Source of the DNA: a virus
Strand: one strand, 5' to 3'
Virus record (IMG/VR): IMGVR_UViG_3300009175_000943
Coordinates: 1-64,000 of that record
Length of the DNA stretch: 64,000 nt
Shown: piece after piece, positions 10,837 through 50,959 of the stretch
How the letters are laid out: each line of letters begins with the position of its first letter
Numbering within the stretch: the first letter of the stretch is position 1
Program-made: the position numbers and the translations under genes
The notes under the pieces: generated by a model
Told to the model about the DNA's origin: nothing
Databases searched by the model: none
What the model saw: the letters and a program-made list of their open reading frames with translations, nothing else

Positions 10837-10918
10837 GTTAGTCTTGACCTTTCTTCTATCATAGCATACAATTAACGATTATCCATTCCGAATATACATT
10901 TTTATGTAGGTGAGACTT

Positions 10919-11698
10919 ATGCAACAATTTAATAAAGTTGTAGACTCTGGTAAGCGACAGGAATTTGGCACCGGTGCTGTTCGAGATACCCAGGAGGGGA
11001 AAGGTCGCTTTGATTTGCTGCCATACTATGCTATTACTCGTTTAGCACAGCATTTTGAAAACGGCAGCCAAAAGTATGGAGATGACAATTGGCGTAAAGG
11101 CATTCCATTGCGTCGATACTTAGATTCCATGATGCGACATGCATTCAAATTTATGGCCGGAATGAAAGATGAAGATCATTTGAGTGCAATTATGTGGAAC
11201 TCTGCCTGCCTTTTGGAAACACAGGAGATGATACGGATCGGGTTGTTGCCGAAGGAATTAGATAATTTGCCTGCGTCGGTTGTAAATGAGGATGCAAGTA
11301 CCGAGTTGCCAGAAAGTGATGTGCTAATTACAGATGAAGATAGTCTGTCGAGAGGAATGACATATGTTCCCAAAGGATGGGGATCAGAAACATGGATGAC
11401 AAACAACCATTTATACTGTGGTAAAATACTAAAATTCAATAAGCACAAGCAATGTTCTTGGCATTATCATGTAAGAAAAGATGAGACGTTTTTCTTACAG
11501 TCGGGAAGGTTGCGATTGACTTACGGTAATGTGGATGATATTACCCAAGCTGCAACAATTATTTTGGTGCCAGAGACGACATTCCATGTTCCGCCAGGAA
11601 TGCGACATCAGATGTTTGCTGAGGAAGATTCTATACTTTTAGAAACTTCTACTCAGCATTTGGATAGTGATTCAATTAGGGTAACGAAAGGTGATTAA
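10919..11698 (+). CDS. MazG-like (DUF5664) / cupin fusion protein
   Basis: A 259-residue two-domain protein. Residues about 15-105 match the dATP/dGTP diphosphohydrolase-like DUF5664 domain (GKGRFDLLPYYAI, QKYGDDNWRKG, RHAFKF, E/D-rich helix DEDHLSAIMWN), a MazG-type all-helical nucleotide pyrophosphatase fold. Residues about 150-245 form a cupin with the metal motif HYHVRKDE and later VPPGMRHQM, like sugar-phosphate isomerases. The fusion is unusual: one half suggests nucleotide-pool cleaning, the other small-molecule or sugar binding. The start is ATG 10919, with AGGTGAG upstream. The next gene begins immediately after its stop. Confidence 0.75.
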   Translation: MQQFNKVVDSGKRQEFGTGAVRDTQEGKGRFDLLPYYAITRLAQHFENGSQKYGDDNWRKGIPLRRYLDSMMRHAFKFMAGMKDEDHLSAIMWNSACLLETQEMIRIGLLPKELDNLPASVVNEDASTELPESDVLITDEDSLSRGMTYVPKGWGSETWMTNNHLYCGKILKFNKHKQCSWHYHVRKDETFFLQSGRLRLTYGNVDDITQAATIILVPETTFHVPPGMRHQMFAEEDSILLETSTQHLDSDSIRVTKGD

Positions 11699-12961: not shown

Positions 12962-12968
12962 TGCAAGA

Positions 12969-12996
12969 AAACGCCCGGCCTATGGCCGGGCGTTTT
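12969..12996 (+). terminator. rho-independent terminator
   Basis: AACGCCCGGCC, TAT loop, GGCCGGGCGTT, then TTCGTTT. Closes the secreted repeat-protein gene. Confidence 0.92.
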
Positions 12997-13076
12997 CGTT
13001 TACATTGCGATATATTACTGACAAACGACATCATACTTATTGTAGCAGGATGTTGCTATTACGTTATGGTGGAGCG

Positions 13077-13622
13077 ATGAGATTATTACAGTTCTATTTA
13101 GAAAACACAAGTCTTTTCCCAACAACCGATAAAGAAACCCGTCACTGTTACATTTCTATGGTTTATGATAAGATTTTATCCCAATACGATAAAATCGATT
13201 TGTTAGAAATTGGAGTCGGTAAAGGGCATAGTGTTCTACTTTGGTCTAAGTTTTTTCCAAATGGAAGAATTACAGGAATAGATTCTAATGCTAGTGATTT
13301 ATTGATTCCGCAAGTGGGTAGTAACTATTCCATTGTAATAGGGGACGCTTACCAGATAGCGACTGTGGAACAATTTGGTAAATTTGATATTATCATAGAT
13401 GATGGGCCTCATTCTTTTGAAACCCAAAAATTTACATTGAATCATTACCATAAATTATTAAAATCAAACGGTAAAATTATCATAGAAGATGTTGCTTCTA
13501 TTGATGAAGCTTTGTTGCTTAAAAGCTCCTTTGCGAATTGTGATTTATACGATTTACGAAATGTAAAATCAAGGCATGACGACTTGGTAATTATTCGTCG
13601 TAAAGGAGTGCCTATGTTGTAA
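13077..13622 (+). CDS. class I SAM-dependent methyltransferase (Methyltransf_24-like)
   Basis: A 181-residue Rossmann-fold protein. The SAM-binding loop is LLEIGVGKGHS (near residue 43), followed by the acidic residue in ITGIDSNASD, FDIIIDDGPHSFETQ (motif IV with an added His), and GKIIIEDVA. This set resembles the small-molecule/sugar methyltransferases often found in glycan clusters. The start at 13077 follows GGTGGAGCG; an upstream open frame overlaps the terminator and is ignored. It lies 1.9 kb before the glycosyltransferase cluster, so glycan methylation is a reasonable but unproven role. Confidence 0.8.
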   Translation: MRLLQFYLENTSLFPTTDKETRHCYISMVYDKILSQYDKIDLLEIGVGKGHSVLLWSKFFPNGRITGIDSNASDLLIPQVGSNYSIVIGDAYQIATVEQFGKFDIIIDDGPHSFETQKFTLNHYHKLLKSNGKIIIEDVASIDEALLLKSSFANCDLYDLRNVKSRHDDLVIIRRKGVPML

Positions 13623-15499: not shown

Positions 15500-16468
15500 A
15501 TGAGGGTATTCATTCTAAATGCAGATTCCTATAATAGGATGGAGTCGGTAGTAATTTCACATCTATACAGTCATCTTAATGTGGTTTCTAATATAAATGA
15601 AGCCGATATTGTAATTGTGGGAGTGTCTTATTTTCATGATTATAGATTTAATGAGGCGTTGAGAGGGATTAACAAACCTTGGGTATTGGTGGATTTTGTC
15701 GAATACTGTTGGGATTGGCAGCCAGTGGATACGCATGTTTTTGGCAAAAATACAAGTGAGTTCCGAAAGAGGTGGGAAAGTAATTTTGATCAATGGATGC
15801 TGTTTGACGAATTTATTAGAAACCGTCCTCCCATTATGTATTTTAAGAGAGAGTTATTATCCAAAGATGCAAATAATCGATTGAAGCCAATAGAGTATCT
15901 TTGCCATATGGACGCTCAGCCAATTCAGAATAGGGACGAATTCGATGCTAGGTCAATAGATGTGTTTTACAATTGGGGAGAGTCAAATCCGCTTCGTCCG
16001 AGATTGCATGGTGAAATTTTTACCAAAAAGAATTACGGGATTATTTCACAATGGGATCATCTAGACACATATTTCCATCACAACGCATCTGAAAGAAAGG
16101 TGTGGGTTAGCATATTCACACCCCATTTCTCACGTGTGCATTACGGTGAAATTATCAGGGCACAAAGTAGATCTAAAATTAGTGTGAGTTTGCCGGGATG
16201 TGGTATGAAATGCTTTAGGCATAGTGAAGCCAATGTGGGGGCTATTATGGCTTTAACAGATGATAAATTGGCGTGGTCTTATCCTTTTGAGCACGGAGTA
16301 AACTGTATAGTCATTCGTAGGGATTGCATGCATGACGATTTACTAGAGGCAACACGAAGAAGTGATTTATATGAAATATATTTAAGGTCTCAAGAAACAG
16401 CAGATAAGTATCGCCCAAGAAGATATGTGGACGAATATTTTATTCCATCCATTAGGAGTGTATTATAA
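15500..16468 (+). CDS. putative glycosyltransferase-like protein, cluster gene 1
   Basis: A 322-residue protein beginning MRVFILNADSYN. It shows a Rossmann-like N-terminus (ADIVIVGVSYF) and a C-terminal half with SLPGCGMKCFRHSEANVG, the kind of segment that binds nucleotide sugars in GT-B-like enzymes, ending with a long helix before VDEYF. It resembles the minus-strand gene at 19478-20419 in overall plan. The start at 15500 follows GAAAGGTAC; the 43 codons upstream overlap the preceding small gene. Sugar donor and acceptor are unknown. Its stop overlaps the next start by 1 nt. Confidence 0.55.
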   Translation: MRVFILNADSYNRMESVVISHLYSHLNVVSNINEADIVIVGVSYFHDYRFNEALRGINKPWVLVDFVEYCWDWQPVDTHVFGKNTSEFRKRWESNFDQWMLFDEFIRNRPPIMYFKRELLSKDANNRLKPIEYLCHMDAQPIQNRDEFDARSIDVFYNWGESNPLRPRLHGEIFTKKNYGIISQWDHLDTYFHHNASERKVWVSIFTPHFSRVHYGEIIRAQSRSKISVSLPGCGMKCFRHSEANVGAIMALTDDKLAWSYPFEHGVNCIVIRRDCMHDDLLEATRRSDLYEIYLRSQETADKYRPRRYVDEYFIPSIRSVL

Positions 16469-17190
16469 TGATAAAAATAATTACTGTGTCTAATAGAAAG
16501 CCGGTAGAGCCATATTATTGCTATGATGATTTTTTTAAGTCGTGTAAGAAGTATGGAAACAATCCAATTGTATTGGGGGAACATGGAGGATTTAATGGAT
16601 TGATCTCTAAACCCAAGCTTCTTTTGGAATACTTATTAGCCGGAAATGTAAAAGATAAATACATGGTGTTTTCGGATTGTTGGGACGTGGTGATCACTAG
16701 AAATCCAGAAGAACTTCTGAATAGATATCTACCATTTAATACATCTATTGTTTTTAATGCAGAAAGAAATTTATTCCCCAGAACGGATCTGGCGGATAGG
16801 TATCCAGACGTTGGCACTCCTTTCAAACATTTGAATTCTGGATTTTTTATAGGAGAGACGGAGGCGATTATAGCGTTGTTGAAACACTTGAGACTTGAAT
16901 TACAACCGGACGATTATAGAAAACCAGATGGGTCAATGTTCCATTCCAATGATCAAGATAATTTTTTGGAGGCGTTCACACAGCAGCCGGTGCCAATGAA
17001 ATTAGACGTTAGGTGTGAAATAGCACAAACCTTGCACGATGAGTTGCTCGAAAATTACGAGGTAAGCAATACCGGCATTAAGAACAAAATAACAGGAACG
17101 GAACCTATGGTCGTGCATGCTAACGGCGGTGGTAAGACGGGACAAGTGATGCCGGTGTTTATTAGACTTTGGAGAGAGGCAAACCCATGA
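16468..17190 (+). CDS. PLOD/procollagen-type glycosyltransferase
   Basis: A 240-residue glycosyltransferase matching the lysyl-hydroxylase-associated GT fold. It has an N-terminal strand (KIITVSNRKP), LLLEYL, then YMVFSDCWDVVITRNPEELL with a DxxD metal site, IVFNAERNLFP, and the family hallmark FKHLNSGFFIGETEAI followed by SNDQDNFLEAF. The family transfers hexoses onto hydroxylated or other acceptors using UDP-sugars; a Mn-binding His (VVHANGGG) lies near the C-terminus. It is translationally coupled on both sides. What it decorates (virion protein, DNA or host glycan) cannot be read from sequence. Confidence 0.8.
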   Translation: MIKIITVSNRKPVEPYYCYDDFFKSCKKYGNNPIVLGEHGGFNGLISKPKLLLEYLLAGNVKDKYMVFSDCWDVVITRNPEELLNRYLPFNTSIVFNAERNLFPRTDLADRYPDVGTPFKHLNSGFFIGETEAIIALLKHLRLELQPDDYRKPDGSMFHSNDQDNFLEAFTQQPVPMKLDVRCEIAQTLHDELLENYEVSNTGIKNKITGTEPMVVHANGGGKTGQVMPVFIRLWREANP

Positions 17191-17951
17191 TAATGGATGA
17201 AGTGTTGGAAAGATATAGATTATCGCACGAAGCTTTGAATAAAAACGTGGCCTTAGATGAATTTTATTTAAGAGACGGAATAAAGTTCAAGATATGTGCA
17301 GAATCAAGATTTCCATTTGAATTTTTTTGCTTCCGTTCACCACCAATGGTTGAAGAGATGGACGGGTTCTTGTCTATGACAAGAGATCGACATGCTTTAT
17401 TAGATGTTGGGGCGTATCATGGGGTGTTTTCGCTTGCGTTTGCAGCTAGTGGACAGAACAAACAAGCTGTAGCTGTTGAGCCCTCACCAGAGGCACATCC
17501 GAAATTAGCTATTAATATACAAGCTAATTGTCATTTGAAGATTCGTGCAGAGAATGTAGCTTTATCAAATGCTTTTGGTACTTTAGACATGGGTTTTGAG
17601 TGGGATCATGCTGTTGTGAAACAGGCTTTGAACACGGCTGATACCAGAGCGATTGTGGTGCAAAAAACAACTGGTGATTCTCTGTGCGGTCGAGAGAGTT
17701 TTATGCCAGATGTTATAAAGATAGACGTTGAAGGGCACGAACTAAAAGTTCTTCAAGGTCTTGCGAGTGTAATTGAACAAAACCATCCCATTATTTTTTT
17801 GGAATTGCATCCATTGCATTTGGAGAAAGAAGGAGATAGTTTAGCAGATATAGAAAAATTTATTGTTGAGCATGATTATATCATTACGTCGTCTAGTGGA
17901 GTTATGGCGAATGTATATAATTTTGAAAGAGTGGTTCTGAAAAGGAAATAG
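17187..17951 (+). CDS. FkbM-family methyltransferase
   Basis: A 254-residue SAM enzyme. ALLDVGAYHGVFSLAFA is motif I, AVAVEPSPEAHPKL is the FkbM-type acidic loop, and PDVIKIDVEGHELKVLQGL is the strongly diagnostic FkbM segment, followed by PIIFLELHP. The family O-methylates sugars and polyketides. The ATG overlaps the previous stop (ATGA); ATG 17193 is an alternative. It sits inside a run of glycosyltransferases, so capping of a phage-made glycan is the likely job. Confidence 0.85.
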   Translation: MIMDEVLERYRLSHEALNKNVALDEFYLRDGIKFKICAESRFPFEFFCFRSPPMVEEMDGFLSMTRDRHALLDVGAYHGVFSLAFAASGQNKQAVAVEPSPEAHPKLAINIQANCHLKIRAENVALSNAFGTLDMGFEWDHAVVKQALNTADTRAIVVQKTTGDSLCGRESFMPDVIKIDVEGHELKVLQGLASVIEQNHPIIFLELHPLHLEKEGDSLADIEKFIVEHDYIITSSSGVMANVYNFERVVLKRK

Positions 17952-17954
17952 TAT

Positions 17955-18764
17955 ATGAAGATATCATGTATTATAAACTGCGATACCAGAAGTGGATTTG
18001 AGCAACAAGAGACCGCATTTACAAAAATGAATGAAGGGTGTCGATCTGTAGATTTCTTAACAGATGGAGTTAAGAACAAGAAAATTTTTTTAGATGGGTT
18101 CGATATAGAAGTAATTGTTTTTGTGGATGAGCACAATAACGTGCCACCAGATGTTTTGGCAACATTACGAGAGGTGGCAGATGTAGTAGTGTTGAGAAAG
18201 CATACAAAATATTATCACGGAGGAATTTTCGATAAATTCAATGATATTAATTATCTTCATGCGTTTATGATGGCGAGAGGTGATTATATTTTTCATTTTG
18301 ATGCTGACTGTGCTGCATTTACCAGCGGTCCACAGCATATTCAATGGCTTATTTCTTTATTAGACAATTATAAATTTGTATCGTATCCTAGTGCGTGGAG
18401 TCCTCATGCTGTCAATGATCCGCAATTTGATCACATGTGGGCCTCTACTAGATTTTTTGCATGCCATCATTCAACTTTAGATTTTACGGAAATTGAAAAA
18501 TGTTTAGTAAATCCAGATTATATGTGGTCTAAGTATGGCGACAAAAGGCGAAGATTATCATGGATGGAACATGTATTGGGAATTACTTGTGGATCTAATG
18601 TATTTTATCCTCCAATAGAAATAGAAAAATATATGATTTTCTGTTGGGACACATATAGGGTCGGAGTGTTGGGCCATTTGAATGTATTGCCATACGAGGC
18701 AATATTGAATTTTGTAAAATTAGCTGGAGGAATACACTACCCAGCAGACGTAAAAGGAACATGA
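17955..18764 (+). CDS. glycosyltransferase family 2-like (GT-A)
   Basis: A 269-residue protein with a GT-A layout. It has an N-terminal strand (KISCIINCDTRSG), an acidic loop (VIVFVDEHNNVP), NYLHAFMMARGDYIFHFDADCAAF containing the DxD metal motif, and a later acceptor-side domain with Trp/Cys-rich segments (MWSKYGDKRRR, ITCGSNVFYPP). Donor and acceptor are unknown. It begins 3 nt after the FkbM gene and overlaps the next methyltransferase, so it is part of one operon. Confidence 0.75.
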   Translation: MKISCIINCDTRSGFEQQETAFTKMNEGCRSVDFLTDGVKNKKIFLDGFDIEVIVFVDEHNNVPPDVLATLREVADVVVLRKHTKYYHGGIFDKFNDINYLHAFMMARGDYIFHFDADCAAFTSGPQHIQWLISLLDNYKFVSYPSAWSPHAVNDPQFDHMWASTRFFACHHSTLDFTEIEKCLVNPDYMWSKYGDKRRRLSWMEHVLGITCGSNVFYPPIEIEKYMIFCWDTYRVGVLGHLNVLPYEAILNFVKLAGGIHYPADVKGT

Positions 18765-19471
18765 TGAATTTACCAAAAATAGACATTATTGAATTATTCA
18801 AAGCCACGCCAGGAGCTATTTCTGTTTGTGAAATGGTAGCAATTTATAACATTGCCTCACAGGCTCCGCAAGGCTCAACATTTGAAACCGGAAGTCATGC
18901 TGGCAAGTCTTCTATTGCGGCAAGTTGTGGTTTTAATGGGCGAAGAACTCATCATTTAATTGATCCTTGTTACGATTTGAGTAATCGAGAGGCGTGGAAA
19001 CATGCGTGCCAAGAATCGCCGGAAAATATGCCGTGGGCTTATGTGAACGATGTGGATTTCTGCGACAAAGTATGTAATAGAGTTTTGCAGGCAAGTAACG
19101 GAAATGTAAGTCCGCATCTTATGGGAGATTATTCATTGCACGCCATCCCTTTAATACAAGATAACATAGCATATGCTTTTTTAGATAGCGACCAACATCA
19201 ATATGAATTAGTAAAAGCAGAATGTGAATTAATTAGAAATAGAATGGCGGTAGGTGGTATCATTGCTTTTCATGATTTTAGAAATCAGTATGTTGGACCT
19301 CAACAAGTGTACAATGAATTATTAGCAACCGGTGAGTGGCAGGAGGTGGCGGTGCCAGCTAGTGAAATTCGTGCATTTGTGAGTTCTATAGGTGGGGAAA
19401 ATGGCAATAATACTTGGCACGCTGTAGGTGTGGATTTGCCTTTATTTGTGGGAGCAATTAGGAAGATATAG
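18764..19471 (+). CDS. class I SAM-dependent methyltransferase
   Basis: A 235-residue protein with FETGSHAGKSSIAAS as SAM-binding loop, HLIDPCYDLSN, then AYAFLDSDQHQYELVKAE and GGIIAFHDFRNQYVGP, the pattern of Methyltransf_24-type sugar O-methyltransferases with a D/H metal triad. ATG 18764 is used because AAGGA stands 5 nt before it; ATG 18761 is also possible. It closes the plus-strand glycan operon, converging with the minus-strand glycosyltransferase-like gene. Confidence 0.78.
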   Translation: MNLPKIDIIELFKATPGAISVCEMVAIYNIASQAPQGSTFETGSHAGKSSIAASCGFNGRRTHHLIDPCYDLSNREAWKHACQESPENMPWAYVNDVDFCDKVCNRVLQASNGNVSPHLMGDYSLHAIPLIQDNIAYAFLDSDQHQYELVKAECELIRNRMAVGGIIAFHDFRNQYVGPQQVYNELLATGEWQEVAVPASEIRAFVSSIGGENGNNTWHAVGVDLPLFVGAIRKI

Positions 19472-19477
19472 ATGATT

Positions 19478-20419
19478 CTACAATATCGTATTGGCTTTCA
19501 TTGTATTTAAGATGTACGTGGTGCGGGCTGTTTTTGAATAATTAGCATTCATGTGTTGGATGCCATTCATGTAAATTTCGTAAAGGCGATCTGAATCACT
19601 GATAATCGATATGATGTTTTCAATTTCCGATGTAGTGACTTCTCCCCAAACGTCACCTACTTCAACACAATTAACATTTCCAGTCCAGGGGTAGGCCATC
19701 TTTTCGTCATTGCGTTGTCGCAACATGGGAGCGATAGTGATGAGTTGGTATGGTCGTTCACTACCAAATCCTCCACCATCTGCTTCGATAAACATTTTGG
19801 CTTGGCGATGGCGATTGAGCCATTCATCATGCGAGATTCTTACGAATGGCCAAAAACAGTCTACTTTTAATCTTTTGTCTTGGAGTAAACTGCATACAAG
19901 ATTGGCACGCCAAGGACTAGATGCTCCTATGAAACAAATATCATTGGATCTAGAGAATAGCTGCTCTTTTGTAATAGGTTGAAACATGTGGTCTTGAAAT
20001 TGACAATATTCGAGAGGATGCACAAAATCAGGATATTGTTGGCTGGCTTGCATTTTACGCATGAAGTACAATTTCAAAGTACCGGCATTTAATGTGCGAC
20101 CAAGGAATACAGCCCATTCTTGATGTTGTGCTATTTTTTCCGCTAGTGACTTCCAGTTATTGAAACCAATCCATGAAGATTGCATGTCTTTGCAGCCCCA
20201 ATAATCGAAGGCATCAAAGTAGACTACGGGAATCTTTCTTGTTAGCACAACATTGAGAATATTCCAATCATATGGCGCAAATCCACTGTGGCTATCAAAA
20301 AACACTACGTCTGCATGATTAGGATCTGTGACAACGTGATGTCCAAATGCTTCAAAATGCATCCATTCGAACAATCCTGGAGAAGAAAATCCAGTAGGAC
20401 TGATGAACAATATATTCAT
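19478..20419 (-). CDS. putative glycosyltransferase-like protein
   Basis: A 313-residue protein starting MNILFISPTGFSSPG after a good AAGGGG site. It has two Rossmann-like halves: an N-terminal half with HADVVFFDSHSG and VVYFDAFDYWG, and a C-terminal half with DICFIGASSPWRANLV and AKMFIEADGGGFGSERPYQ, the position where GT-B enzymes bind nucleotide sugar. It resembles the 15500-16468 protein in layout and probably shares a function at the opposite end of the cluster. Confidence 0.55.
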   Translation of the reverse strand: MNILFISPTGFSSPGLFEWMHFEAFGHHVVTDPNHADVVFFDSHSGFAPYDWNILNVVLTRKIPVVYFDAFDYWGCKDMQSSWIGFNNWKSLAEKIAQHQEWAVFLGRTLNAGTLKLYFMRKMQASQQYPDFVHPLEYCQFQDHMFQPITKEQLFSRSNDICFIGASSPWRANLVCSLLQDKRLKVDCFWPFVRISHDEWLNRHRQAKMFIEADGGGFGSERPYQLITIAPMLRQRNDEKMAYPWTGNVNCVEVGDVWGEVTTSEIENIISIISDSDRLYEIYMNGIQHMNANYSKTARTTYILNTMKANTIL

Positions 20420-20585: not shown

Positions 20586-20679
20586 TGTCGAAAATGAAAA
20601 GACGACGTAAACAATCGATCATGGCACACTGATGAATTTACCAAATATGTGCAGCTAGGATTGGCTGAATAAATGAGGA

Positions 20680-20706
20680 AAACGCCCGGCGACGGCCGGG
20701 CGTTTT
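20680..20706 (+). terminator. rho-independent terminator
   Basis: AAACGCCCGGC, GACG loop, GCCGGGCGTTTT. No gene is clearly recognised directly upstream, so it closes either the possible 36-aa gene or a lost gene. Confidence 0.88.
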
Positions 20707-20714
20707 CGTTTCTA

Positions 20715-21524: not shown

Positions 21525-21716
21525 ATGATAAACATTAATAAGCTAATTGGAATGCCCGTTAAAGAAGCAAGAACGCTTTGTGAAGAGGTTGGGGTCAGAC
21601 TCCGAATCACTAAACAGGACCAGCAAGCTTTCGTGGGCACGTGTGAATACGATACGGATCGTGTGAATGTGCGTGTTGAAAACGGGAAAGTTGCGAAAGT
21701 TGAAGGAATGGGTTAA
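21525..21716 (+). CDS. small I78-inhibitor-like fold protein (63 aa)
   Basis: Residues read IGMPVKEARTLCEE, a basic strand RLRITKQDQQ, then DRVNVRVENGKVAKVEG. This is the layout of small phage proteins related to I78-type protease inhibitors (a helix packed on a beta sheet ending with the NVRVENG loop). Whether it inhibits anything is unknown. AAGAGG precedes the ATG, and a TATATAA box lies further upstream at about 21494. The stop overlaps the start of the RlmN-like gene (TAATG). Confidence 0.55.
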   Translation: MININKLIGMPVKEARTLCEEVGVRLRITKQDQQAFVGTCEYDTDRVNVRVENGKVAKVEGMG

Positions 21717-22660
21717 TGCGTCTGATTGATAAAATCAGTTCAAAAGTAGATAAGACAGTAAAATTCATTTTTCAACTCAAGGATGGCCTCATTACCGAGG
21801 CAGCCTACATCAATAAGGACGACGGCAAAGATATAATTTGCGTGTCGTGCCAGACTGCGTGCCCATTGGGTTGTGAATTTTGTCATACCACAGATGCGAT
21901 TGGCAAGATCCGGGCTAGAAATTTAGAAGCCACAGAAATGATAGATGTGGTTTCGGCATCACATGCGCTGCTCGAATTAGGGCAGAATAAACGGATGCTT
22001 CTCATATCTTACATGGGCTGTGGTGAACCCATGTGCAACACTTGGCATGTGCTTGGGAGTATGCATAAGCTCAGGGAGGAGTATTCTCTAATTAGATTTG
22101 CCATTGCCACGCTTCTTCCAAGTCACACTTGGACAAATTTTTTCCATTTAATCAAAATGGTACAAACGCATAAGTTCGATCTCAAGATGCATTTGTCTTT
22201 GCACTTTACGGATGATGACATTCGTAAAGAATGGATGCCAGCGGCGTTGCCATATCGCACGGCCATTGCTGCATTGGAGTTCTACGCTAACTTGACCGGC
22301 AATTCGGTTGAAGCACATTATGCGATGATTGATGGTGTGAATGACAGTGACGATAATGCTTATGCACTTGTAGATGCATTGCAGGGCAGGGGTATCCCAG
22401 TGAAGTTGCTGCAATATAATGAACGCAAGACCATCAATCATCACACCACTGAAAATAGTCGTGTCCAAAGATTTATGGATATTTTATGGGACGAAGCAAT
22501 TGATTGTGAATATTACGTACCACCGGGATTAGACGTAGGAGCTAGTTGTGGTCAATTTTTGTTAGATTACTATCTCAAGTATAATACCATAGGGGAAAAT
22601 CAAAATGCATTACAATCCACATTATGTGCAGTTGACGGAAAATTTGACCTTGGATATTAA
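21716..22660 (+). CDS. RlmN/Cfr-like radical SAM methyltransferase
   Basis: A 314-residue radical SAM protein. The iron-sulphur cluster motif is C49xxxC53xxC56 (ACPLGCEFC). The two methyl-transfer cysteines of RlmN/Cfr have equivalents: C42 in IICVSCQ and C278 in GASCGQF. MGCGEP corresponds to the GMGEP SAM loop. E. coli RlmN methylates A2503 of 23S rRNA and A37 of some tRNAs; Cfr acts on the same nucleotide. The protein lacks the usual N-terminal helical domain of about 90 residues, so substrate choice may differ. Its last 56 nt overlap the next gene. A role in modifying host ribosomes or tRNA during infection is inferred. Confidence 0.82.
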   Translation: MRLIDKISSKVDKTVKFIFQLKDGLITEAAYINKDDGKDIICVSCQTACPLGCEFCHTTDAIGKIRARNLEATEMIDVVSASHALLELGQNKRMLLISYMGCGEPMCNTWHVLGSMHKLREEYSLIRFAIATLLPSHTWTNFFHLIKMVQTHKFDLKMHLSLHFTDDDIRKEWMPAALPYRTAIAALEFYANLTGNSVEAHYAMIDGVNDSDDNAYALVDALQGRGIPVKLLQYNERKTINHHTTENSRVQRFMDILWDEAIDCEYYVPPGLDVGASCGQFLLDYYLKYNTIGENQNALQSTLCAVDGKFDLGY

Positions 22661-24342: not shown

Positions 24343-25070
24343 TCGATATATTGATAGTGGGCAAATTTTGGGTTCTTTGAGTGTAACCTATACCAGATCG
24401 TAGATCTTAATATGTTAAGTGATTTGGCAGCATCGACGGCACTGTTGAAAACAACGCCGTCGATGCTTATTTTTTTAATGTTAGGAATTGCTTTTTTCTT
24501 TTCTGCTGGCGTCATTTTGGAAAATCTATCTTTTTGGACGCTGCTTATTTTTTCTTTTGAGGTTATGGTGTGGTGTTTTCCGTAGAATGAATTTCCACTG
24601 CCTTTTCTTCTCTCTGCCTCTTTGTGTCTGTATTCATCATTCTGCCACATCTTTTTTGAAGCGGCACTTATTTTATTTTTGGTTTCAATGTCTGTCTTGC
24701 TTCCTTTTCGGCGGGCACTCATTTTGGCACGTTGGCTGGAGTCCCAGCGATTGCCATAATTTGGGTTTTTGCTGCCAGTAATGTTCATCTTGTATTTAAT
24801 CCATTTTTCTTCAGTCCATTCGGATTTGGCTTTTTTAGAGCCTTCGCTCATTTTGCGGATTATGTCTTCTCTGTTGGGGTGAGATGTTAGATTGTCTCCA
24901 CCCGTAGCTTGTTTGCCAATATTATAAAGATCGCAGTAAGTGTCCAAATAATATTGTTCTCTTTCCAACAATGTGTTTTCGGATGTGTGCTCTATTATTT
25001 CAAACATAAATGCTGACTCACCATATTTACAAAATGCTCGTTGTAGTTTTATCTCGGACGCCGTAAAACC
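24339..25070 (-). pseudogene. GIY-YIG homing endonuclease, N-terminus lost
   Basis: The frame encodes a GIY-YIG endonuclease lacking its catalytic N-terminal strands. What remains begins with KLQRAFCKYGESAFMFEIIEH (the helix and strand after GIY-YIG) and LLEREQYYLDTY with the catalytic Glu. NUMOD3-like DNA-binding repeats (PNYGNRWDSSQRAKMSA, GNSFYGKHH) and a helix-turn-helix C-terminus (DAAKSLNILRSTIWYRLHS) follow. The frame formally continues to 25145, but that part lies in the left end of the TnpB element. The insertion has removed or separated the GIY-YIG start. It overlaps the thyA stop by 4 nt. Confidence 0.75.
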
Positions 25071-25344
25071 CCTACAATCCAAAGGATTGTTTGCTCTGTG
25101 AGTGAGAAAGTGAGCCGTAGGCGAACGACCGAATGAACAGGGCAAACCTCTTTAGGGTAGCGGGATGTAAGGCGTCATAATGGAAATTAGTCAAAATCAC
25201 CACTGATTGACGCTGATTTAGTTTGGTCAATGTCCTCCCATCAAAATGGGCTGAAAATCAGTTGAAACGGCTTGGAAAAATTATTTTGGAAAAATTGTCG
25301 GATTTCTTTCAAAAATTGATACCAAGAACACTATGTATATTGGT

Positions 25345-25509
25345 ATGGAAAACATAGACAAAGAAAAAGCCACGAAGCACCTAACCATCTTGATACAACC
25401 TACACTGATGCACAAGTTTCAGTTGGCGTGCGTCAAGAACTACAAAACAATGTCGGAAGCATTGCGTGATTTCATTCGTGATTATATCAAACAATCAGGA
25501 GACAAGTGA
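25345..25509 (+). CDS. small ribbon-helix-helix protein ahead of tnpB (54 aa)
   Basis: Starts MENIDKEKATKHLTIL (an in-frame ATG at 25333 adds four residues). The strand KHLTILIQ, then helices LMHKFQLACVKNY and TMSEALRDFIRDYIKQ, match an RHH/CopG DNA-binding fold. Its TGA stop overlaps the GTG start of tnpB (GTGA), so the two are co-translated. A role as repressor of tnpB is the simplest idea. Confidence 0.7.
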   Translation: MENIDKEKATKHLTILIQPTLMHKFQLACVKNYKTMSEALRDFIRDYIKQSGDK

Positions 25510-26738
25510 GTTTAGTTTCTTACAAATACAGATTAGAACCAACATCTGAACAGGAAGTGCTACTAAATAAGCATTTCGGTTGTGTAAGGTTTCTGTATAA
25601 TCATTGGCTTGCTGGACGTATGACCGCCTATCAAAGTGAAGGTAAGACGCTCAACTATTATGACAATGCCACTTCGCTTCCCGAAATGAAGAAAGAACTA
25701 CCTTGGCTCAAAGAACCATCAAGCCAACCATTACAATACTCTGCCCGATGCTTACAAAACGCATACGATAATTTCTTCAACAACATCAAAAAACAAAAGA
25801 AAGGCAAAAAGGGATTTCCTCGTTTCAAGAAGAAACACGGCAAACAATCATTCCGTGTCCAACAAAACATCAAAGTGGAAGGCAACAAAGTAAGTTTTCC
25901 AAAGTTCAAGGAAGGCATCCGTATTCTGCTTCACCGACCATTAGAAGGCGAGATTGAGTTTGCTACGGTAAGTAAGAACAAAGCGGGACAATATTTCATC
26001 AGCATTACGACTAGCCGAGACATTCCTAAACTAAAACCAACAAATAAAACCATCGGTATTGACTTAAATGTTAGTGCTATTGTTGGTAGCGATGGAACAA
26101 AATACAAAAACCCATTGCCGAGAACCAAATATTCCAATCGGTTGAAGTTTTTGAAGAAAGCAAAGAATAGAACTGAAAAAGAAAGCAAAGGTAGGACAGA
26201 AGCGTATCTCAAACTAAACCAGTTAGAGCAACGCATCAGGAACATTCGTGAGGACTTCCAGCACAAAGTTAGCACTAAAATAGTGAACGAAAACCAAGTC
26301 ATTGTTTTAGAAACATTGTCGGTCAAGGATATGCTCAAGAACGCTGATCCTGAAATTAGGAAAATTGAACGATGGAGAGAACGAGCGTATCATAGGAAAC
26401 AAAATGATGCCTCATTTTCTTCGTTCATTCAAAAACTAAAATACAAATGTGAATGGTATGGTCGTGAGTTGCGACAGGTGGATAAATGGTTTCCATCTTC
26501 GCAATTATGCTCTGTATGTGGTTGGCAAAACAAGGACTTGACTCTTGAAGATAGAGAATGGACTTGTTGGAATTGTTGGACTAATCACGATAGGGATGAA
26601 AATGCTGCCACCAATATTCACAATGAAGGTATAACTCCTCGCTGGAATCGAGGATTAGCCGTTTGTCCTGACATAAGACCCGTCAAAGATGGGCTGTTAG
26701 TTGGAACGGAAGCCCCGCCCTCTTTAGGGGCGGGGTAA
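25506..26738 (+). CDS. tnpB: TnpB RNA-guided endonuclease
   Basis: A 410-residue OrfB/TnpB protein with GTG start. The RuvC-like catalytic residues are intact: D186 (TIGIDLNVS), E269 (VLETLSVKD) and D364 (HDRDENAATN). The zinc finger CSVCGW...CWNCW is complete. The N-terminal YRLEPTSEQEVLLNKHFGCVRFLYN and SLPEMKK segments are typical. TnpB cleaves DNA guided by an omega RNA made from the gene's 3' end and the right end, which promotes retention of the element. The last codons lie in the right-end hairpin. Unlike many genomic copies it is not decayed. Confidence 0.92.
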   Translation: MSLVSYKYRLEPTSEQEVLLNKHFGCVRFLYNHWLAGRMTAYQSEGKTLNYYDNATSLPEMKKELPWLKEPSSQPLQYSARCLQNAYDNFFNNIKKQKKGKKGFPRFKKKHGKQSFRVQQNIKVEGNKVSFPKFKEGIRILLHRPLEGEIEFATVSKNKAGQYFISITTSRDIPKLKPTNKTIGIDLNVSAIVGSDGTKYKNPLPRTKYSNRLKFLKKAKNRTEKESKGRTEAYLKLNQLEQRIRNIREDFQHKVSTKIVNENQVIVLETLSVKDMLKNADPEIRKIERWRERAYHRKQNDASFSSFIQKLKYKCEWYGRELRQVDKWFPSSQLCSVCGWQNKDLTLEDREWTCWNCWTNHDRDENAATNIHNEGITPRWNRGLAVCPDIRPVKDGLLVGTEAPPSLGAG

Positions 26739-26743
26739 TTCAC
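26640..26743 (+). ncRNA. predicted omega RNA scaffold (tnpB 3' end and right end)
   Basis: Inferred by position from the known biology of TnpB elements: the guide scaffold overlaps the last ~100 nt of the ORF and the right-end hairpin, and the guide is the host sequence immediately beyond the element (starting about 26740-26744). No separate promoter is visible. Boundaries are approximate. Confidence 0.5.
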
Positions 26744-26824
26744 CTTTAATTGTAATCATCTTGCACTTCCTTTCATTGCCTGCTATTATATAGTATCGTC
26801 GTTCACAATTTATTTGGAAAATTT

Positions 26825-29534: not shown

Positions 29535-30953
29535 ATGGAAGCTATACATGAATTTCTAAGAAGATCAAAAGAACGCAAGCCAAAAATTGCCTTAGTGGGT
29601 GATATGCTAATTGATCAATATTATGAGGTGGATGCCAATCGAGTATCCCCAGAATTTCCAGTACCCATAATGAAATCGGCTAGTGATGTATGCAAGGTGG
29701 CAGTTCCAGGCGGCGTTGGTAATGTTGCGTGTCAATTTAGACATTTCGATATAGATGTGCAATTGTTTGCTATGATTGATAGTTATGCCAGATGGGTTTT
29801 GATGGAATCTAGGATTGGTACGGCAAATTGTCATACGATTCCTGATGGGCACGTACCCATCAAGAAGCGTTATTATCAGGGAGAATTTCCTTTGTGTCGT
29901 TGGGATGTGGAAGAATCAGATTATGGCATGTCAAGTATTGTTGCATCTCAAGAAGCGTTGGAAGAAAAATTTAGTGCGGCCCCCAAACCAGAAGTGGTTA
30001 TTTTTTCAGATTATCAAAAGGGTGTATTTAATGGATATCCTTGGGGCAAACAGAGATGGTTGAAAAGCATGCGTGATGAAGATATCATTACCATTGTAGA
30101 TTCTAAAAATTTGAACATAGGGGAGTGGGAAGGGTGTACTGTTTTTAAGCCAAATTCTAAAGAAGCCGAATTAATGACAGGGATTAAGGACTGGGAGAGA
30201 CAGTGTGATTTAATTCAAGATAGTGCAAAATGTATGGCAGTAGTCATTACCCAAGGAGGCAATGGAGTCGTAGGCAAGGTGGCAGGCAGATATTTTGAAT
30301 ATCGGCCAAGAAAAAGCGTTGTTGCCAATAGCGTGATTGGAGCCGGTGATTGTTTTATGGCTTTCTTAGCTATGGGTTTAGCACATGGGATGGATGTGGT
30401 GGACGTAGCTCAAGTGGCATTCGAGGCTGGGGCTGTTTATGTGCAGAATATGCATAATAAGCCGGTGACACCTTATGAATTGATGCGGCATGTGGACCCT
30501 GTGCGGGCTAAGTTGTGTATGCCACCCAAGGAACGGGATTACAAGTTAGTTTTTACAAATGGATGTTTTGATTGTGGTTTAACTAAAGGGCACGTAAGAT
30601 ATTTAGATAAAGCTAAACAGCTTGGAGACAGGTTGATTGTGGCAATTAATGGCGATGAAAGCGTAAGGCGATTAAAGGGGCATGATAGACCGGTTATGAC
30701 ATTAGAAGACAGAATGGATGTGGTGGCTGGTTTAGAGAGTGTAGATTTTGTGGTTTCTTTTAATGAAGATACACCTTATAATTTGATTAAAGAAATTATG
30801 CCTGATCTGCTTGTCAAGGGTGGAGACTGGAAGGTTGAGGATATAGCTGGACATGACATTGTGCCCGTGCAGATTATTGGCACCATTATTTGCGATTCCA
30901 CAACACAAAAAATAGAAAAACTTAGAAAAACTTGTAATGAAGACGATATATAA
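29535..30953 (+). CDS. hldE: HldE-like bifunctional heptose-7-P kinase / heptose-1-P adenylyltransferase
   Basis: A 472-residue two-domain enzyme matching host HldE, which makes ADP-heptose for LPS core. Residues 1-325 form a PfkB/ribokinase-type kinase: VGDMLIDQYYEV, VPGGVGNVACQ, IVDSKN, and the GAGD catalytic loop at 269-272. Residues 335-472 form a nucleotidyltransferase: FTNGCFDC..., AINGDESVRRLKG, LEDRMDVVAGLESVDFVV, DLLVKGGDW. The nucleotide-binding HxGH is replaced by a stretch ending TKGH with a one-residue insertion, so adenylyltransfer may be altered. No Shine-Dalgarno is visible; TAATATTTAC directly precedes the ATG. Role: supply of a heptose nucleotide to phage glycosyltransferases, inferred. 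Confidence 0.85.
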   Translation: MEAIHEFLRRSKERKPKIALVGDMLIDQYYEVDANRVSPEFPVPIMKSASDVCKVAVPGGVGNVACQFRHFDIDVQLFAMIDSYARWVLMESRIGTANCHTIPDGHVPIKKRYYQGEFPLCRWDVEESDYGMSSIVASQEALEEKFSAAPKPEVVIFSDYQKGVFNGYPWGKQRWLKSMRDEDIITIVDSKNLNIGEWEGCTVFKPNSKEAELMTGIKDWERQCDLIQDSAKCMAVVITQGGNGVVGKVAGRYFEYRPRKSVVANSVIGAGDCFMAFLAMGLAHGMDVVDVAQVAFEAGAVYVQNMHNKPVTPYELMRHVDPVRAKLCMPPKERDYKLVFTNGCFDCGLTKGHVRYLDKAKQLGDRLIVAINGDESVRRLKGHDRPVMTLEDRMDVVAGLESVDFVVSFNEDTPYNLIKEIMPDLLVKGGDWKVEDIAGHDIVPVQIIGTIICDSTTQKIEKLRKTCNEDDI

Positions 30954-35141: not shown

Positions 35142-35177
35142 TAACTTAAACCCATAAACCCATTGAGGATTAATGAT

Positions 35178-37271: not shown

Positions 37272-37303
37272 TAGATAGTTGTTGTTGGGATGGGTTGGGT
37301 TGT

Positions 37304-37336
37304 GGCTCGCCGGTACAAGTACCGGCGAGCCTTTTT
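37304..37336 (+). terminator. rho-independent terminator after prkA
   Basis: GGCTCGCCGGTAC pairs with GTACCGGCGAGCC, then TTTTTC. It separates prkA from the yeaH-spoVR unit. Confidence 0.93.
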
Positions 37337-37347
37337 CATTAATGGGT

Positions 37348-37376
37348 TTGGTAAATCTGAACATTGCAGCTATAAT
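37348..37376 (+). promoter_or_regulatory. sigma70-like promoter for yeaH-spoVR
   Basis: TTGGTA (37348-37353), 17 bp, TATAAT (37371-37376, perfect -10). It lies 25 nt before the yeaH start with AAAGGAG between. Confidence 0.8.
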
Positions 37377-37400
37377 AAAATATACAAAAGGAGAAACAAC

Positions 37401-38636
37401 ATGCCTCGAAGGGTCGAAGAAGATTATCAAGATTTCATGGACATTTACGCTGGTAGACGGCGTAAGGCGTTAAAAAAGTTCATTGAAGATGGATCGATAT
37501 TTAGAACTAGGGGTAAGGGCGACAAAGTTAGAATCACCATCCCTCGAATAAACATACCACATTTCGTATTTGGCAAGGAAGGGCAGGGTATTGGTCGTGG
37601 TCCTGGAAAGAAGGGTGACGTTGTTGGTAAAGATCCTGATAAAGGACAGGGCAGAGGAGCGGGGCAGGAAGAAGGTGATGGAATTGATATTGATGTGGAT
37701 TTGGAAGAAGTTCTCAAGTTCTTGCAAGAAGAACTTAAACTTCCCGATCTTAAACCGAAGCCTAATCAAACCTATGAAGAGATTAAGATTAAGTACAATG
37801 ACATTTCTATGCAGGGACCGGAATCATTACGACATAATAGACGGACTATGTTGCAGGCTCTTAAACGAATGTGTGCCAGTGGAGAGATTATGAATCTTCA
37901 CAAGATTCCAGGGTTCGCAGATCCTATTAGATTGATCACGCCGATCAACAGTGATCGTAGATACCGTCAGTATCGTGAAATAAAGATACCAGCTTCTAAT
38001 GCAGTGGTGTTCTTTGCTAGAGACGGCTCGGGAAGTATGGACCAATATAAATGTGACATTGTAAGTGATATGGCATGGTGGATTGACATTTGGCTTAGAA
38101 AATTTTATAAGCGTGTGGAAGAAATGTATGTTTGGCATGACACTATCGCTTCTGAAGTGGATCAGAATAAATTCTATCGTCATCGGTATGGAGGCGGAAC
38201 AACTTGTTCTTCGGCATTACAGCTAATTGCTAAACAATTAGAAAATAGATTTCCTCCAGAAAAGTGGAATGTATATGTATTTTACTTTACAGATGGAGAA
38301 AACTACGATGGAGATAATGCTAAGTTTTGTGATATAATCAAGAAACAGTTCCCGCCAGAAATTGCAAATTTCGTTGGCATTACGCAGGTGTTGTCATATT
38401 CATATGATGGAAGTCTACAACATTATGTAGATGAAAACATTGGGCATTTGCCCAATGTGAGAACTACTGGCATTGCCGAGCCAGATCGTAAAGATCCTGA
38501 TAGTGGTGGTTGGGGTTGGTATACACCTCAATTAGGGGAAGAAGAAAGAAACAAGCAGATTAAGCGAGCGATTGTAGATTTGCTAGGCGTGGCAGAAAAC
38601 ACTAAAAAGAAAAGCAAGACAGGAGCTAAAAGATAA
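37401..38636 (+). CDS. yeaH: YeaH/DUF444 family protein (VWA domain)
   Basis: A 411-residue DUF444 protein. The N-terminus contains RVEEDYQDFMDIYAGRRR and IPRINIPHFVFG followed by a Gly-rich stretch (GIGRGPGKKGD), as in YeaH. DIDVDLEEVLKFLQEELKLPDL is a strong family signature. A von Willebrand A fold follows, with MIDAS loop DGSGSM at 208-213, then YGGGTTCSSAL and FYFTDGENYDGDNA. DUF444 proteins work with PrkA and SpoVR; molecular function is unsettled. It starts after AAAGGAGAAACAAC and overlaps spoVR by 1 nt. Confidence 0.95.
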   Translation: MPRRVEEDYQDFMDIYAGRRRKALKKFIEDGSIFRTRGKGDKVRITIPRINIPHFVFGKEGQGIGRGPGKKGDVVGKDPDKGQGRGAGQEEGDGIDIDVDLEEVLKFLQEELKLPDLKPKPNQTYEEIKIKYNDISMQGPESLRHNRRTMLQALKRMCASGEIMNLHKIPGFADPIRLITPINSDRRYRQYREIKIPASNAVVFFARDGSGSMDQYKCDIVSDMAWWIDIWLRKFYKRVEEMYVWHDTIASEVDQNKFYRHRYGGGTTCSSALQLIAKQLENRFPPEKWNVYVFYFTDGENYDGDNAKFCDIIKKQFPPEIANFVGITQVLSYSYDGSLQHYVDENIGHLPNVRTTGIAEPDRKDPDSGGWGWYTPQLGEEERNKQIKRAIVDLLGVAENTKKKSKTGAKR

Positions 38637-46654: not shown

Positions 46655-46665
46655 AAAATTTCTGG

Positions 46666-49594: not shown

Positions 49595-49841
49595 ACAAAA
49601 AATAATTGCAATTCTTGAAAAGGTATTAGGGAAGCAACATATAGTTCCTGAGTCTAGAGTTGTTGATGACCTTGGATGTTGCTCTATTGTAGACGGCATG
49701 GAAATAGTGCTATTGTTACAACATGAGTTTAGAATAAATTTACTGATACAAGATTGTCATGAAATTGTAACGGTTCATGATTTGATTAACAAAATTGAAT
49801 CGTTAATTAAAAAACCATATAGTATACATTTGTGGGAGTAA
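49587..49841 (+). CDS. acyl carrier protein-like
   Basis: An 84-residue protein with the helical bundle pattern of acyl/peptidyl carrier proteins. It has IIAILEKVLG, VVDDLGCCSIVDGMEIVLLLQHEF and LLIQDCHEIVTVHDLINKIESL. The phosphopantetheine-bearing Ser is in CCSIVDG (usual context DSL), so it may be modified. The TTG at 49587 is chosen because GGAAAGG lies 7 nt upstream. It overlaps the AAA+ gene by 8 nt and precedes an RmlB-like dehydratase by 2 nt, which suggests a carrier in sugar or lipid modification. Confidence 0.7.
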   Translation: MIEQKIIAILEKVLGKQHIVPESRVVDDLGCCSIVDGMEIVLLLQHEFRINLLIQDCHEIVTVHDLINKIESLIKKPYSIHLWE

Positions 49842-49843
49842 TA

Positions 49844-50959
49844 ATGAAAAGAGTTCTTTTAACAGGTGTGGGTGGTTTTATTGGGTCGCACTGTCTCCAA
49901 TACTGGTTAGAAAACACAGATTGGGAAATTATTGGTTTAGATTCTTTCCGTCACAAAGGAATCGTTAGTCGATGTAATGAGGTTTTCAAAAGATATGGAA
50001 ATTCAAAGCGGGTTAGAATCTATATGCATGATTTGACGGTTCCGATTGATTGGCCGTTAGAGAATCAAATCATGGGAAGGAGTCTTGATGATCGGGGGGT
50101 TCTTACAGAAAAGCCAATTGATTATATTATTAACATGGCTTCTGATTCTGCTGTAGAGCGATCTACCACTGATCCCACACATTGTTTAAGAAACAATTAT
50201 GAATTGATGGTTAACATGTTGGAGTTTGCCAGAAAGGCAAAGCCAAAGCTATTTGTTCATATTAGTACAGATGAGGTTTATGGAGAAGCACCACCGCTTC
50301 CTAGTCTAGGGCATCTTGAATGGTCGCCAATTGCCCCATCTAATCCATATGCGGCATCTAAAGCAGCCCAAGAAGCTTTAGCGATTGCTTATTGGCGTAC
50401 TTATGATCTGCCTGTGGTGATTACAAATTGCATGAATATAATCGGGGAATGGCAAGATCCAGAAAAATTCTTGCCTAAGATTATTCAATACGTTGCTACA
50501 GGTAAAGAAATGCCTGTGTATGCCGATAAGACCGATGGCCCTTCATTGACTAATCTTAGTGGTCACGGTGGAAATCATGCTGAAAATAACCAAGGTTGGT
50601 ATATTGGCTCTAGAATTTATTTGGATGCTAGAAATAAAGCTGATGCCATTAAATTTATTGCGTCCAACCTGCATCCTGCTCGTTATAGTCAAGGAGCAAA
50701 ACGACCAGATCGCTATAATATTTGTGGCGATACCGAATTGAATAATTTGGAATTGGCACGGGCAGTTGCTAAAATTATGGGAAAGGAACTTTTATATAAA
50801 TTAATACCCAGTGAATCTGCCCGTCCAGGTTATGATAGGCGTTATGCTTTAGATGGAAGTAAATTGAGAAGTCTTGGTTGGAGACAACCAATATCGTTTG
50901 ATGAAACTTTAGATCGCATTATTAAATGGACTATGCAAAACAAACACTGGATATCATGA
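49844..50959 (+). CDS. RmlB-like NAD-dependent sugar-nucleotide dehydratase
   Basis: A 371-residue extended SDR enzyme. Rossmann loop TGVGGFIGSH, then STDEVYGE with the catalytic Asp-Glu pair of dTDP-glucose 4,6-dehydratases, YAASKAAQE with Tyr/Lys (YxxxK), and C-terminal RPGYDRRYALDGSKLRSLGW, a diagnostic RmlB-type end. A basic insert (NNQGWYIGSRIY) lies before it. It would convert a nucleotide sugar to its 4-keto-6-deoxy form. GTG at 49832 is possible but ATG 49844 after GGGAGTAAT is preferred. Confidence 0.85.
   Translation: MKRVLLTGVGGFIGSHCLQYWLENTDWEIIGLDSFRHKGIVSRCNEVFKRYGNSKRVRIYMHDLTVPIDWPLENQIMGRSLDDRGVLTEKPIDYIINMASDSAVERSTTDPTHCLRNNYELMVNMLEFARKAKPKLFVHISTDEVYGEAPPLPSLGHLEWSPIAPSNPYAASKAAQEALAIAYWRTYDLPVVITNCMNIIGEWQDPEKFLPKIIQYVATGKEMPVYADKTDGPSLTNLSGHGGNHAENNQGWYIGSRIYLDARNKADAIKFIASNLHPARYSQGAKRPDRYNICGDTELNNLELARAVAKIMGKELLYKLIPSESARPGYDRRYALDGSKLRSLGWRQPISFDETLDRIIKWTMQNKHWIS

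What the first reader, a model, noticed from the sequence alone, without database searches (positions are those of the whole stretch)
15500..20419. Glycosyltransferase/methyltransferase cluster with a PLOD-type enzyme
Six consecutive genes (two GT-like proteins, a PLOD/procollagen-type GT, a GT-A enzyme, an FkbM and a Methyltransf_24 methyltransferase) overlap or abut, and an isolated methyltransferase lies upstream at 13077. This is a compact phage glycan pathway: transfer followed by O-methyl capping. PLOD-type GTs are best known from collagen glycosylation and are rare in annotated phages. The target could be phage DNA, virion proteins or host surface.
Basis: partly seen in the sequence, partly recalled or inferred. 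Interest (0 to 1): 0.6.

Follow-up and report, generated by a model that had tools for sequence, protein, structure and literature searches.

The report
Phage sugar-transfer and methylation gene cluster
A huge environmental phage carries a tight block of sugar-transferring and methylating enzymes, one of them related to the animal enzyme that puts glucose on collagen; it most likely builds a methyl-capped sugar on one of the phage's own proteins rather than on collagen.

Summary
Five co-directional, mostly overlapping genes (15500-19471, +) encode a GT-B-like enzyme, a stand-alone PLOD glycosyltransferase (GT_PLOD, E 1.8e-29), an FkbM methyltransferase, a GT2-like GT-A enzyme and a Methyltransf_24 enzyme. 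The sixth gene (19478-20419) is a distant paralog of the first but lies on the opposite strand, convergent. A 259-kb contig contains the same locus at near-100% identity. A different 79-kb phage contig carries a parallel cluster: GT-B 50% identical, PLOD 40%, plus other GT and methyltransferase genes. This is therefore a recurring two-GT core with varying partners. Collagen is an unlikely target: the 259-kb contig shows no collagen repeat and no 2OG hydroxylase, and this PLOD lacks the Trp and one of two Asp residues of collagen glucosyltransferases. The contig encodes S-adenosylmethionine synthetase, sugar-nucleotide enzymes and other GTs. It shows no flippase, GtrA or initiating lipid transferase, and its thymidylate synthase looks ordinary. 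Best reading: a cytosolic, O-methylated glycan assembled on a phage protein; the target is inferred. In passing: related marine phages fuse GT25, PLOD and hydroxylase domains beside collagen-like tail fibres.

The parts
15500..16468 (+). GTB1: GT-B-like glycosyltransferase (Glyco_trans_1_2-like), 322 aa
   Evidence: No direct Pfam hit. 50% identical to an ORF in phage contig L027. Profile A2 finds bacterial proteins that are PF13524 at 6e-16.
16468..17190 (+). Stand-alone PLOD-type glycosyltransferase, 240 aa
   Evidence: PF25342 E 1.8e-29. Best PDB match is the LH3 GT domain, 1.1e-16; mimivirus R699 1.2e-13. DxxD 70-73, N123, D162, Q163 and H217 kept; Trp->F103 and first Asp->N161 changed.
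17187..17951 (+). FkbM-family SAM-dependent methyltransferase, 254 aa
   Evidence: PF05050 1.1e-18; TIGR01444 9e-29, above cut-off; SAM motif DVGAYHG.
17955..18764 (+). GT2-like GT-A glycosyltransferase with FHFDADCA (DxD), 269 aa
   Evidence: PF00535 E 0.009, below cut-off; DAD at residue 116; no relatives in phage records.
18761..19471 (+). Methyltransf_24 SAM-dependent methyltransferase, 236 aa
   Evidence: PF13578 6.3e-8, above cut-off; motif ETGSHAG.
19478..20419 (-). GTB2: second GT-B-like protein, convergent, distant paralog of GTB1, 313 aa
   Evidence: BLASTP to GTB1 1e-6, 23% identity; aligned in A2/A5.
13077..13622 (+). Isolated SAM-dependent methyltransferase, 181 aa; membership of the system uncertain
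   Evidence: PF13847 3.2e-9, PF13578 1.2e-7; weakly similar to a methyltransferase inside the L027 cluster, 3e-5.
12967..12997 (+). Hairpin GAAAACGCCCGGCC...GGCCGGGCGTTTTC, terminator-like
   Evidence: scan
20678..20707 (.). Second copy of the GAAAACGCCCGGC hairpin, terminator-like on both strands, beyond the cluster
   Evidence: scan
29535..30953 (+). HldE-like bifunctional heptose-phosphate kinase/adenylyltransferase; possible donor supply
   Evidence: NF008454 6.6e-81 but below the equivalog cut-off; PfkB + CTP_transf_like.
49832..50959 (+). dTDP-glucose 4,6-dehydratase-like SDR; possible donor supply
   Evidence: TIGR01181 3.5e-60, below the equivalog cut-off; PF01370 5e-39.

Best explanation
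The locus is a cytosolic glycan-assembly and capping module of a large (at least 259 kb) tailed phage. Three or four glycosyltransferases (GTB1, PLOD, GT-A and probably GTB2) build a short glycan in sequence, and the FkbM and Methyltransf_24 enzymes put methyl groups on sugar hydroxyls or on the acceptor. The PLOD enzyme is a stand-alone UDP-sugar transferase whose donor pocket differs from that of collagen glucosyltransferases, so it probably uses another sugar or another acceptor. The most likely acceptor is a phage structural protein modified in the cytosol before assembly. Shown: gene identities, tight coupling of the five genes, conserved catalytic motifs, and recurrence of the GTB1+PLOD+methyltransferase set in a second phage. 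Inferred: catalysis, order of steps, sugar, O-methylation and target.
For: Family assignments; overlapping coding order. A second, different phage contig (79 kb) has GTB1 50% and PLOD 40% identical, together with a GT34-family GT and three methyltransferases in one run. Metal and sugar-binding residues DxxD, N123, Q163 and H217 are kept. Bacterial relatives of GTB1 lie between a GT41 gene and methyltransferases. The contig encodes SAM synthetase, HldE-like and 4,6-dehydratase-like enzymes, UDP-galactopyranose mutase and further GTs, so donor and methyl supply is partly phage-borne. None of the cluster proteins has a membrane-like hydrophobic segment, and no flippase, GtrA or lipid-initiating transferase was found. 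Precedents: in jumbo phage XacN1, which has an FkbM gene, glycoproteins were detected by proteomics (PMC5852040); mycobacteriophage capsids and tail tubes are glycosylated (cited in PMC12619734).
Against: No acceptor is identified. No recognised virion gene lies next to the cluster. The 259-kb contig may be a fragment, so missing genes (flippase, collagen, hydroxylase) are not proven absent. The GT-A assignment is below threshold, and both AlphaFold models were too poor to use (mean pLDDT 38 and 40). FkbM and Methyltransf_24 enzymes also methylate non-sugar substrates.
Confidence: 0.5

Rival explanations
1. Host surface glycan modification: the enzymes alter or cap LPS or capsule sugars of the infected cell, for example to block superinfection.
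For: Phage-borne GTs often act on O-antigen (established knowledge). HldE-like, GLF-like and GT11 genes resemble surface-polysaccharide enzymes. L027 carries a weak GT9-like gene.
Against: No GtrA, flippase or initiating phosphoglycosyltransferase in 259 kb. No cluster protein has a membrane-like segment.
Confidence: 0.2
2. DNA hypermodification: the glycans are placed on hydroxymethylated bases of phage DNA.
For: Virus-encoded GTs can decorate DNA with diverse glycans (Pyle et al. 2024, cited in PMC12619734). A thymidylate synthase and a nucleoside deoxyribosyltransferase-like gene lie within 5 kb.
Against: The thymidylate synthase passes the canonical ThyA model (TIGR03284, 264.8 against 108) and the window also has a DHFR gene, as needed for true ThyA chemistry. 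No 2OG oxygenase of PF13640 type. PLOD and FkbM enzymes are not known to act on DNA (own knowledge).
Confidence: 0.1
3. Collagen-type glycosylation: the PLOD enzyme glucosylates galactosyl-hydroxylysine on a collagen-like phage fibre, as mimivirus R699 does in vitro and as marine phages with fused GT25-PLOD-hydroxylase appear to do.
For: Family membership. In 46 of 67 distinct loci with the large (mostly fused) enzyme a collagen-like repeat is in the fetched stretch.
Against: No collagen repeat or hydroxylase in the 259-kb contig. Trp->Phe and Asp->Asn at residues important in R699/LH3, whereas the large phage enzymes keep Trp/Tyr and Asp-Asp-Gln in 78 of 78.
Confidence: 0.05
4. The genes are a heterogeneous cargo island with several unrelated substrates (for example small molecules or nucleotides), not one pathway.
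For: The GT-A, FkbM and MT24 genes are not conserved one-to-one in L027; only GTB1 and PLOD clearly are.
Against: Overlapping start/stop junctions, and recurrence of the same enzyme classes together in a second phage.
Confidence: 0.15

Closest known systems
LH3 (PLOD3) GT domain and mimivirus R699 collagen galactosylhydroxylysyl glucosyltransferase
   Same: Same Pfam domain (PF25342); DxxD metal motif, LNSG Asn, Gln and C-terminal His-x-Asn-Gly kept.
   Different: No fused accessory or hydroxylase domain; Trp145(LH3)/W118(R699)->Phe and first Asp of the Asp pair->Asn; no collagen partner found.
GT25-PLOD-2OG fusion proteins of Synechococcus and Roseobacter phages (S-CAM9, S-8S55, CRP-6)
   Same: Phage-encoded PLOD GT domain, 26-29% identity.
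   Different: Those are ~600-aa three-domain proteins downstream of collagen-like tail fibres; here a 240-aa single domain among GTs and methyltransferases.
GTB1-PLOD-methyltransferase cluster of phage contig IMGVR_UViG_3300047471_000466 (L027)
   Same: Same core pair (50% and 40% identity), several methyltransferases, a GT-A-type enzyme, one tight run.
   Different: Its GT-A enzyme is GT34 family; two MT24 and one MT23 instead of FkbM; gene order differs; next to a terminase-like gene.
Phage virion glycosylation (mycobacteriophage capsid/tail-tube glycans; Xanthomonas phage XacN1 glycoproteins)
   Same: Phage-encoded GTs; XacN1 also has an FkbM gene.
   Different: No PLOD enzyme is mentioned there in the passages read; here no virion glycoprotein is demonstrated.

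Membership tests
PLOD-type glycosyltransferase (PF25342) | Sequence match to the GT_PLOD model above its cut-off | tested here: met
   103.1 bits against 27; also 102 bits in G001
PLOD-type glycosyltransferase (PF25342) | Mn-binding DxxD plus C-terminal His | tested here: met
   D70, D73, H217 conserved with phage relatives
Collagen galactosylhydroxylysyl glucosyltransferase (LH3, R699) | Catalytic Trp (W145 LH3 / W118 R699) and the Asp-Asp pair (D190-D191 / D162-D163) | tested here: not met
   F103 and N161-D162 in the window; F and F-E in L027; W/Y and D-D in 78/78 large phage enzymes; roles from PMC11838735 and PMC9546862
Collagen galactosylhydroxylysyl glucosyltransferase (LH3, R699) | Collagen-like substrate and lysyl hydroxylase in the same genome | tested here: inconclusive
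   None in 259 kb, but the contig may be incomplete
Glyco_trans_1_2 (PF13524) GT-B enzymes, for GTB1/GTB2 | Direct Pfam match | tested here: not met
   0 families for both proteins
Glyco_trans_1_2 (PF13524) GT-B enzymes, for GTB1/GTB2 | Profile-level homology to PF13524 members | tested here: met
   Profile A2 finds L117 (1.6e-9) and L118 (2.6e-7), which are PF13524 at 6e-16
Glyco_trans_1_2 (PF13524) GT-B enzymes, for GTB1/GTB2 | GT-B fold | tested here: inconclusive
   AlphaFold model mean pLDDT 40
GT2 (PF00535), for gene 17955-18764 | Match above cut-off and DxD motif | tested here: inconclusive
   16.4 bits against 23.3; DAD at residue 116
FkbM methyltransferase | Match above cut-off and SAM motif I | tested here: met
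   PF05050 68.4/22.7; TIGR01444 100.8/37.7; DVGAYHG
Methyltransf_24 | Match above cut-off | tested here: met
   33.9/26.3 bits
Gtr-type O-antigen seroconversion system | GtrA flippase with membrane GT | tested here: not met
   No PF04138 in 259 kb; no membrane-like segment in cluster proteins
Phage DNA hypermodification by GTs | Base hydroxymethylase | tested here: not met
   The one TS gene passes the canonical ThyA model; no other ORF of G001 has the TS PCH motif in a motif scan. Other routes to base modification were not tested.
Virion glycosylation system | Glycan on a structural protein | not testable with these tools
   needs mass spectrometry

The most novel reading that the evidence does not exclude
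A previously undescribed phage glycosylation module in which a PLOD-fold transferase, freed from collagen and with a remodelled donor pocket, works with a GT-B partner and SAM methyltransferases to put an O-methylated glycan, possibly built from phage-made heptose or deoxy-sugar donors, on virion protein.
Probability: 0.3. Interest if true: 0.55.

Novelty: new variant of a known kind. Interest (0 to 1): 0.42.

Why it matters
Phage-encoded glycan clusters are common, but the PLOD fold is known functionally (to my knowledge) only from collagen glucosylation in animals and giant viruses. A stand-alone version paired with a GT-B enzyme and methyltransferases in two different phages suggests that the fold was used more widely, and it provides small soluble enzymes to test. 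The comparison also exposed a separate group of marine phages whose PLOD enzyme is fused to GT25 and hydroxylase domains beside collagen-like tail fibres, which would make collagen-type lysine modification a bacterial-virus trait.

Tried and rejected
Nucleotide relatives: none in phage records at megablast or blastn sensitivity. GTB1, GTB2 and GT-A by tblastn against phages: none. AlphaFold models of GTB1 (pLDDT 40) and GT-A (38) were too poor, so no fold search was run. PDB profile search for GTB1: only a chance-level hit. Viral scans with the two-sequence GTB1 and PLOD alignments returned only the same two phages; these scans need exact short peptide matches, so they understate the family. 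GTB1 profile in 395 genomes of the phylum of Flavobacterium: nothing. Import judged by composition: GC 38.1% against 40.6% for the window, not decisive. DNA modification was considered and lowered because the TS gene passes the canonical ThyA model and a DHFR gene is present.
Full report
What is there. The window is the first 64 kb of a 102,185-base virus record. A second IMG/VR record of 259,024 bases, IMGVR_UViG_3300022555_003232 (G001), contains that record whole at 99.995-100% identity, so the locus belongs to a large phage genome, perhaps still incomplete. One of its proteins has a 57% identical relative in a 595-kb uncultured phage. The cluster reads, in order on the + strand: GTB1 15500-16468, PLOD 16468-17190, FkbM 17187-17951, GT-A 17955-18764, MT24 18761-19471. 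Junctions are TAATG, ATGA, a 3-nt gap and ATGA. The sixth gene, GTB2 (19478-20419), is on the minus strand and converges on MT24 with a 6-nt gap. GTB1 and GTB2 are distant paralogs (23%, 1e-6). A terminator-like hairpin, GAAAACGCCCGGC..., occurs at 12967-12997 and again at 20678-20707, one beyond each side of the region.

Identities. PLOD: PF25342 1.8e-29; nearest solved structures by sequence are the LH3 GT domain (1.1e-16) and mimivirus R699 (1.2e-13). FkbM and MT24 pass their cut-offs. The GT-A protein matches GT2 only at E 0.009, but carries FHFDADCA. GTB1 and GTB2 have no Pfam hit. A profile of GTB1, its L027 relative and GTB2 finds two proteins in bacterial genomes (1.6e-9, 2.6e-7) that are clear PF13524 Glyco_trans_1_2 members (6e-16) and lie next to a GT41 gene and methyltransferase genes. 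GTB1/GTB2 are therefore GT-B-like by transitive homology, not by fold; the structure models failed.

A recurring module. Among viral contigs, the closest relative of the PLOD enzyme is in a 79-kb phage contig (L027), 37-40% identical, and the two group with 0.99 support in a tree of PLOD domains. L027 carries MT24 - MT23 - GTB1 (50% identical) - GT34 - MT24 - PLOD in one run, followed by a weak GT9-like gene. Only GTB1 and PLOD correspond clearly between the two loci; the MT and GT-A genes are of the same classes but not obvious orthologs. So the core is a GTB1+PLOD pair with exchangeable partners. Scans with these alignments found no further members, but the scan relies on exact short peptides.

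Not a collagen enzyme, as far as sequence tells. In R699 the donor glucose is held by K62, W118, D162, D163, Q164, N138 and H216, and substitutions there cost activity (PMC11838735); the poly-Asp and Trp145 residues are marked as key in LH3 (PMC9546862). In the window enzyme the Trp is F103 and the Asp pair is N161-D162; L027 has Phe and Phe-Glu. The larger phage enzymes keep Trp or Tyr and Asp-Asp-Gln in 78 of 78; six of seven stand-alone bacterial enzymes have Ser-Asn-Gln. DxxD, the LNSG Asn, the Gln and the His are kept in the window enzyme. The alignment of the Asp pair rests on the conserved 16-residue spacing to the next Leu-Asp among the phage sequences; the pairwise HMMER alignment places it slightly differently, so this point is good but not absolute. 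The 259-kb contig shows no collagen repeats and no PF13640 oxygenase.

Supply and target. G001 encodes SAM synthetase, an HldE-like protein and a dTDP-glucose-dehydratase-like protein inside the window, UDP-galactopyranose mutase, GT2, GT11 and GT1-like enzymes, a TPP enzyme, and a TylF-like methyltransferase. The HldE-like, dehydratase-like and mutase proteins fall below the curated equivalog cut-offs, so their exact substrates are open. No cluster protein has a membrane-like segment. No flippase, GtrA or lipid-initiating transferase was found (these searches rang in 8 to 13 of 14 control genomes). The thymidylate synthase passes the canonical ThyA model and a DHFR gene is present. Together these favour a cytosolic protein acceptor over lipid-linked surface sugars and over modified DNA bases. 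Precedent exists: glycoproteins were detected in jumbo phage XacN1 (PMC5852040), and capsid and tail-tube glycans are known in mycobacteriophages (cited in PMC12619734). The acceptor itself is not identified here.

Side result. The isolate-phage relatives of the PLOD domain (Synechococcus phages S-8S55, S-CAM9, S-PRM1; Roseobacter phage CRP-6) are three-domain proteins, GT25 + GT_PLOD + 2OG-FeII oxygenase; for those scanned, Pfam gives the first two strongly and the third weakly and below cut-off. They lie a few genes downstream of tail-fibre genes with long Gly-X-Y domains. In 67 distinct IMG/VR loci with the large enzyme, 46 have at least 20 uninterrupted Gly-X-Y triplets in the fetched stretch, and 22 of 26 among loci of 9 kb or more. 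In these stretches lysine occurs 1082 times at Y and never at X (58 stretches, 4574 triplets), against 140 at Y and 47 at X in collagen-like proteins of Pseudomonadota used as background. X-Lys-Gly is the known lysyl hydroxylase site (own knowledge). Stretches from related phages are not independent, and the background includes sequences that may be phage-derived. Four searches of the held literature found no description of this system in phages, which is not proof of novelty.

Verdict. The interpretation 'glycan transfer plus methyl capping' is the best available; 'collagen-like' applies to family, not to likely function. It is a new variant of a known kind.

Noticed in passing
L020:4296-6161, L021:4164-6008, L022:4164-6008, L024:4416-6185, and IMG/VR loci L028-L105: Marine phages encode a ~600-aa GT25 + PLOD + 2OG-oxygenase fusion beside tail fibres with long Gly-X-Lys collagen-like domains; Lys is at Y 1082 times and at X 0 times. 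This looks like a complete collagen-type hydroxylysine glycosylation pathway in bacteriophages.
   Followed up: partly
window 35163-40243: PrkA kinase, DUF444 (YeaH-like) and SpoVR genes in a row, as in a bacterial stress operon, carried by the phage; SpoVR relatives occur in other huge phages and a Thermus phage.
   Followed up: partly
window 25041-26759; further copies in L014, L016 and a fragment in L006: TnpB/OrfB-like IS605 gene (Cas12f1-like TNB domain) with a conserved 5' flank, repeated across the 259-kb contig at 75-94% DNA identity.
   Followed up: no
window 46302-46655: Phage-encoded tmRNA with tag ANTFAVAA.
   Followed up: no
window 21716-22660: RlmN-like radical SAM protein (phrog_27142, 7.7e-25; weak Radical_SAM match) just past the cluster.
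   Followed up: no
window 10910-11698: Fusion of a dATP/dGTP diphosphohydrolase-like N-terminal domain with a cupin domain.
   Followed up: no
L018:17501-18784: Phage-encoded S-adenosylmethionine synthetase near the end of the 259-kb contig.
   Followed up: no
L108, L110: Stand-alone PLOD GTs in Bacteroidota lie near peptidase/ABC-exporter-like proteins and, in L110, a thiopeptide-dehydratase-like ORF, suggesting peptide natural-product glycosylation (recognised by eye only).
   Followed up: no
L006:6586-16528: Three large paralogous, Cys-rich, fibre-like ORFs (993-1176 aa) on the minus strand, with no Pfam hit for the two scanned.
   Followed up: no
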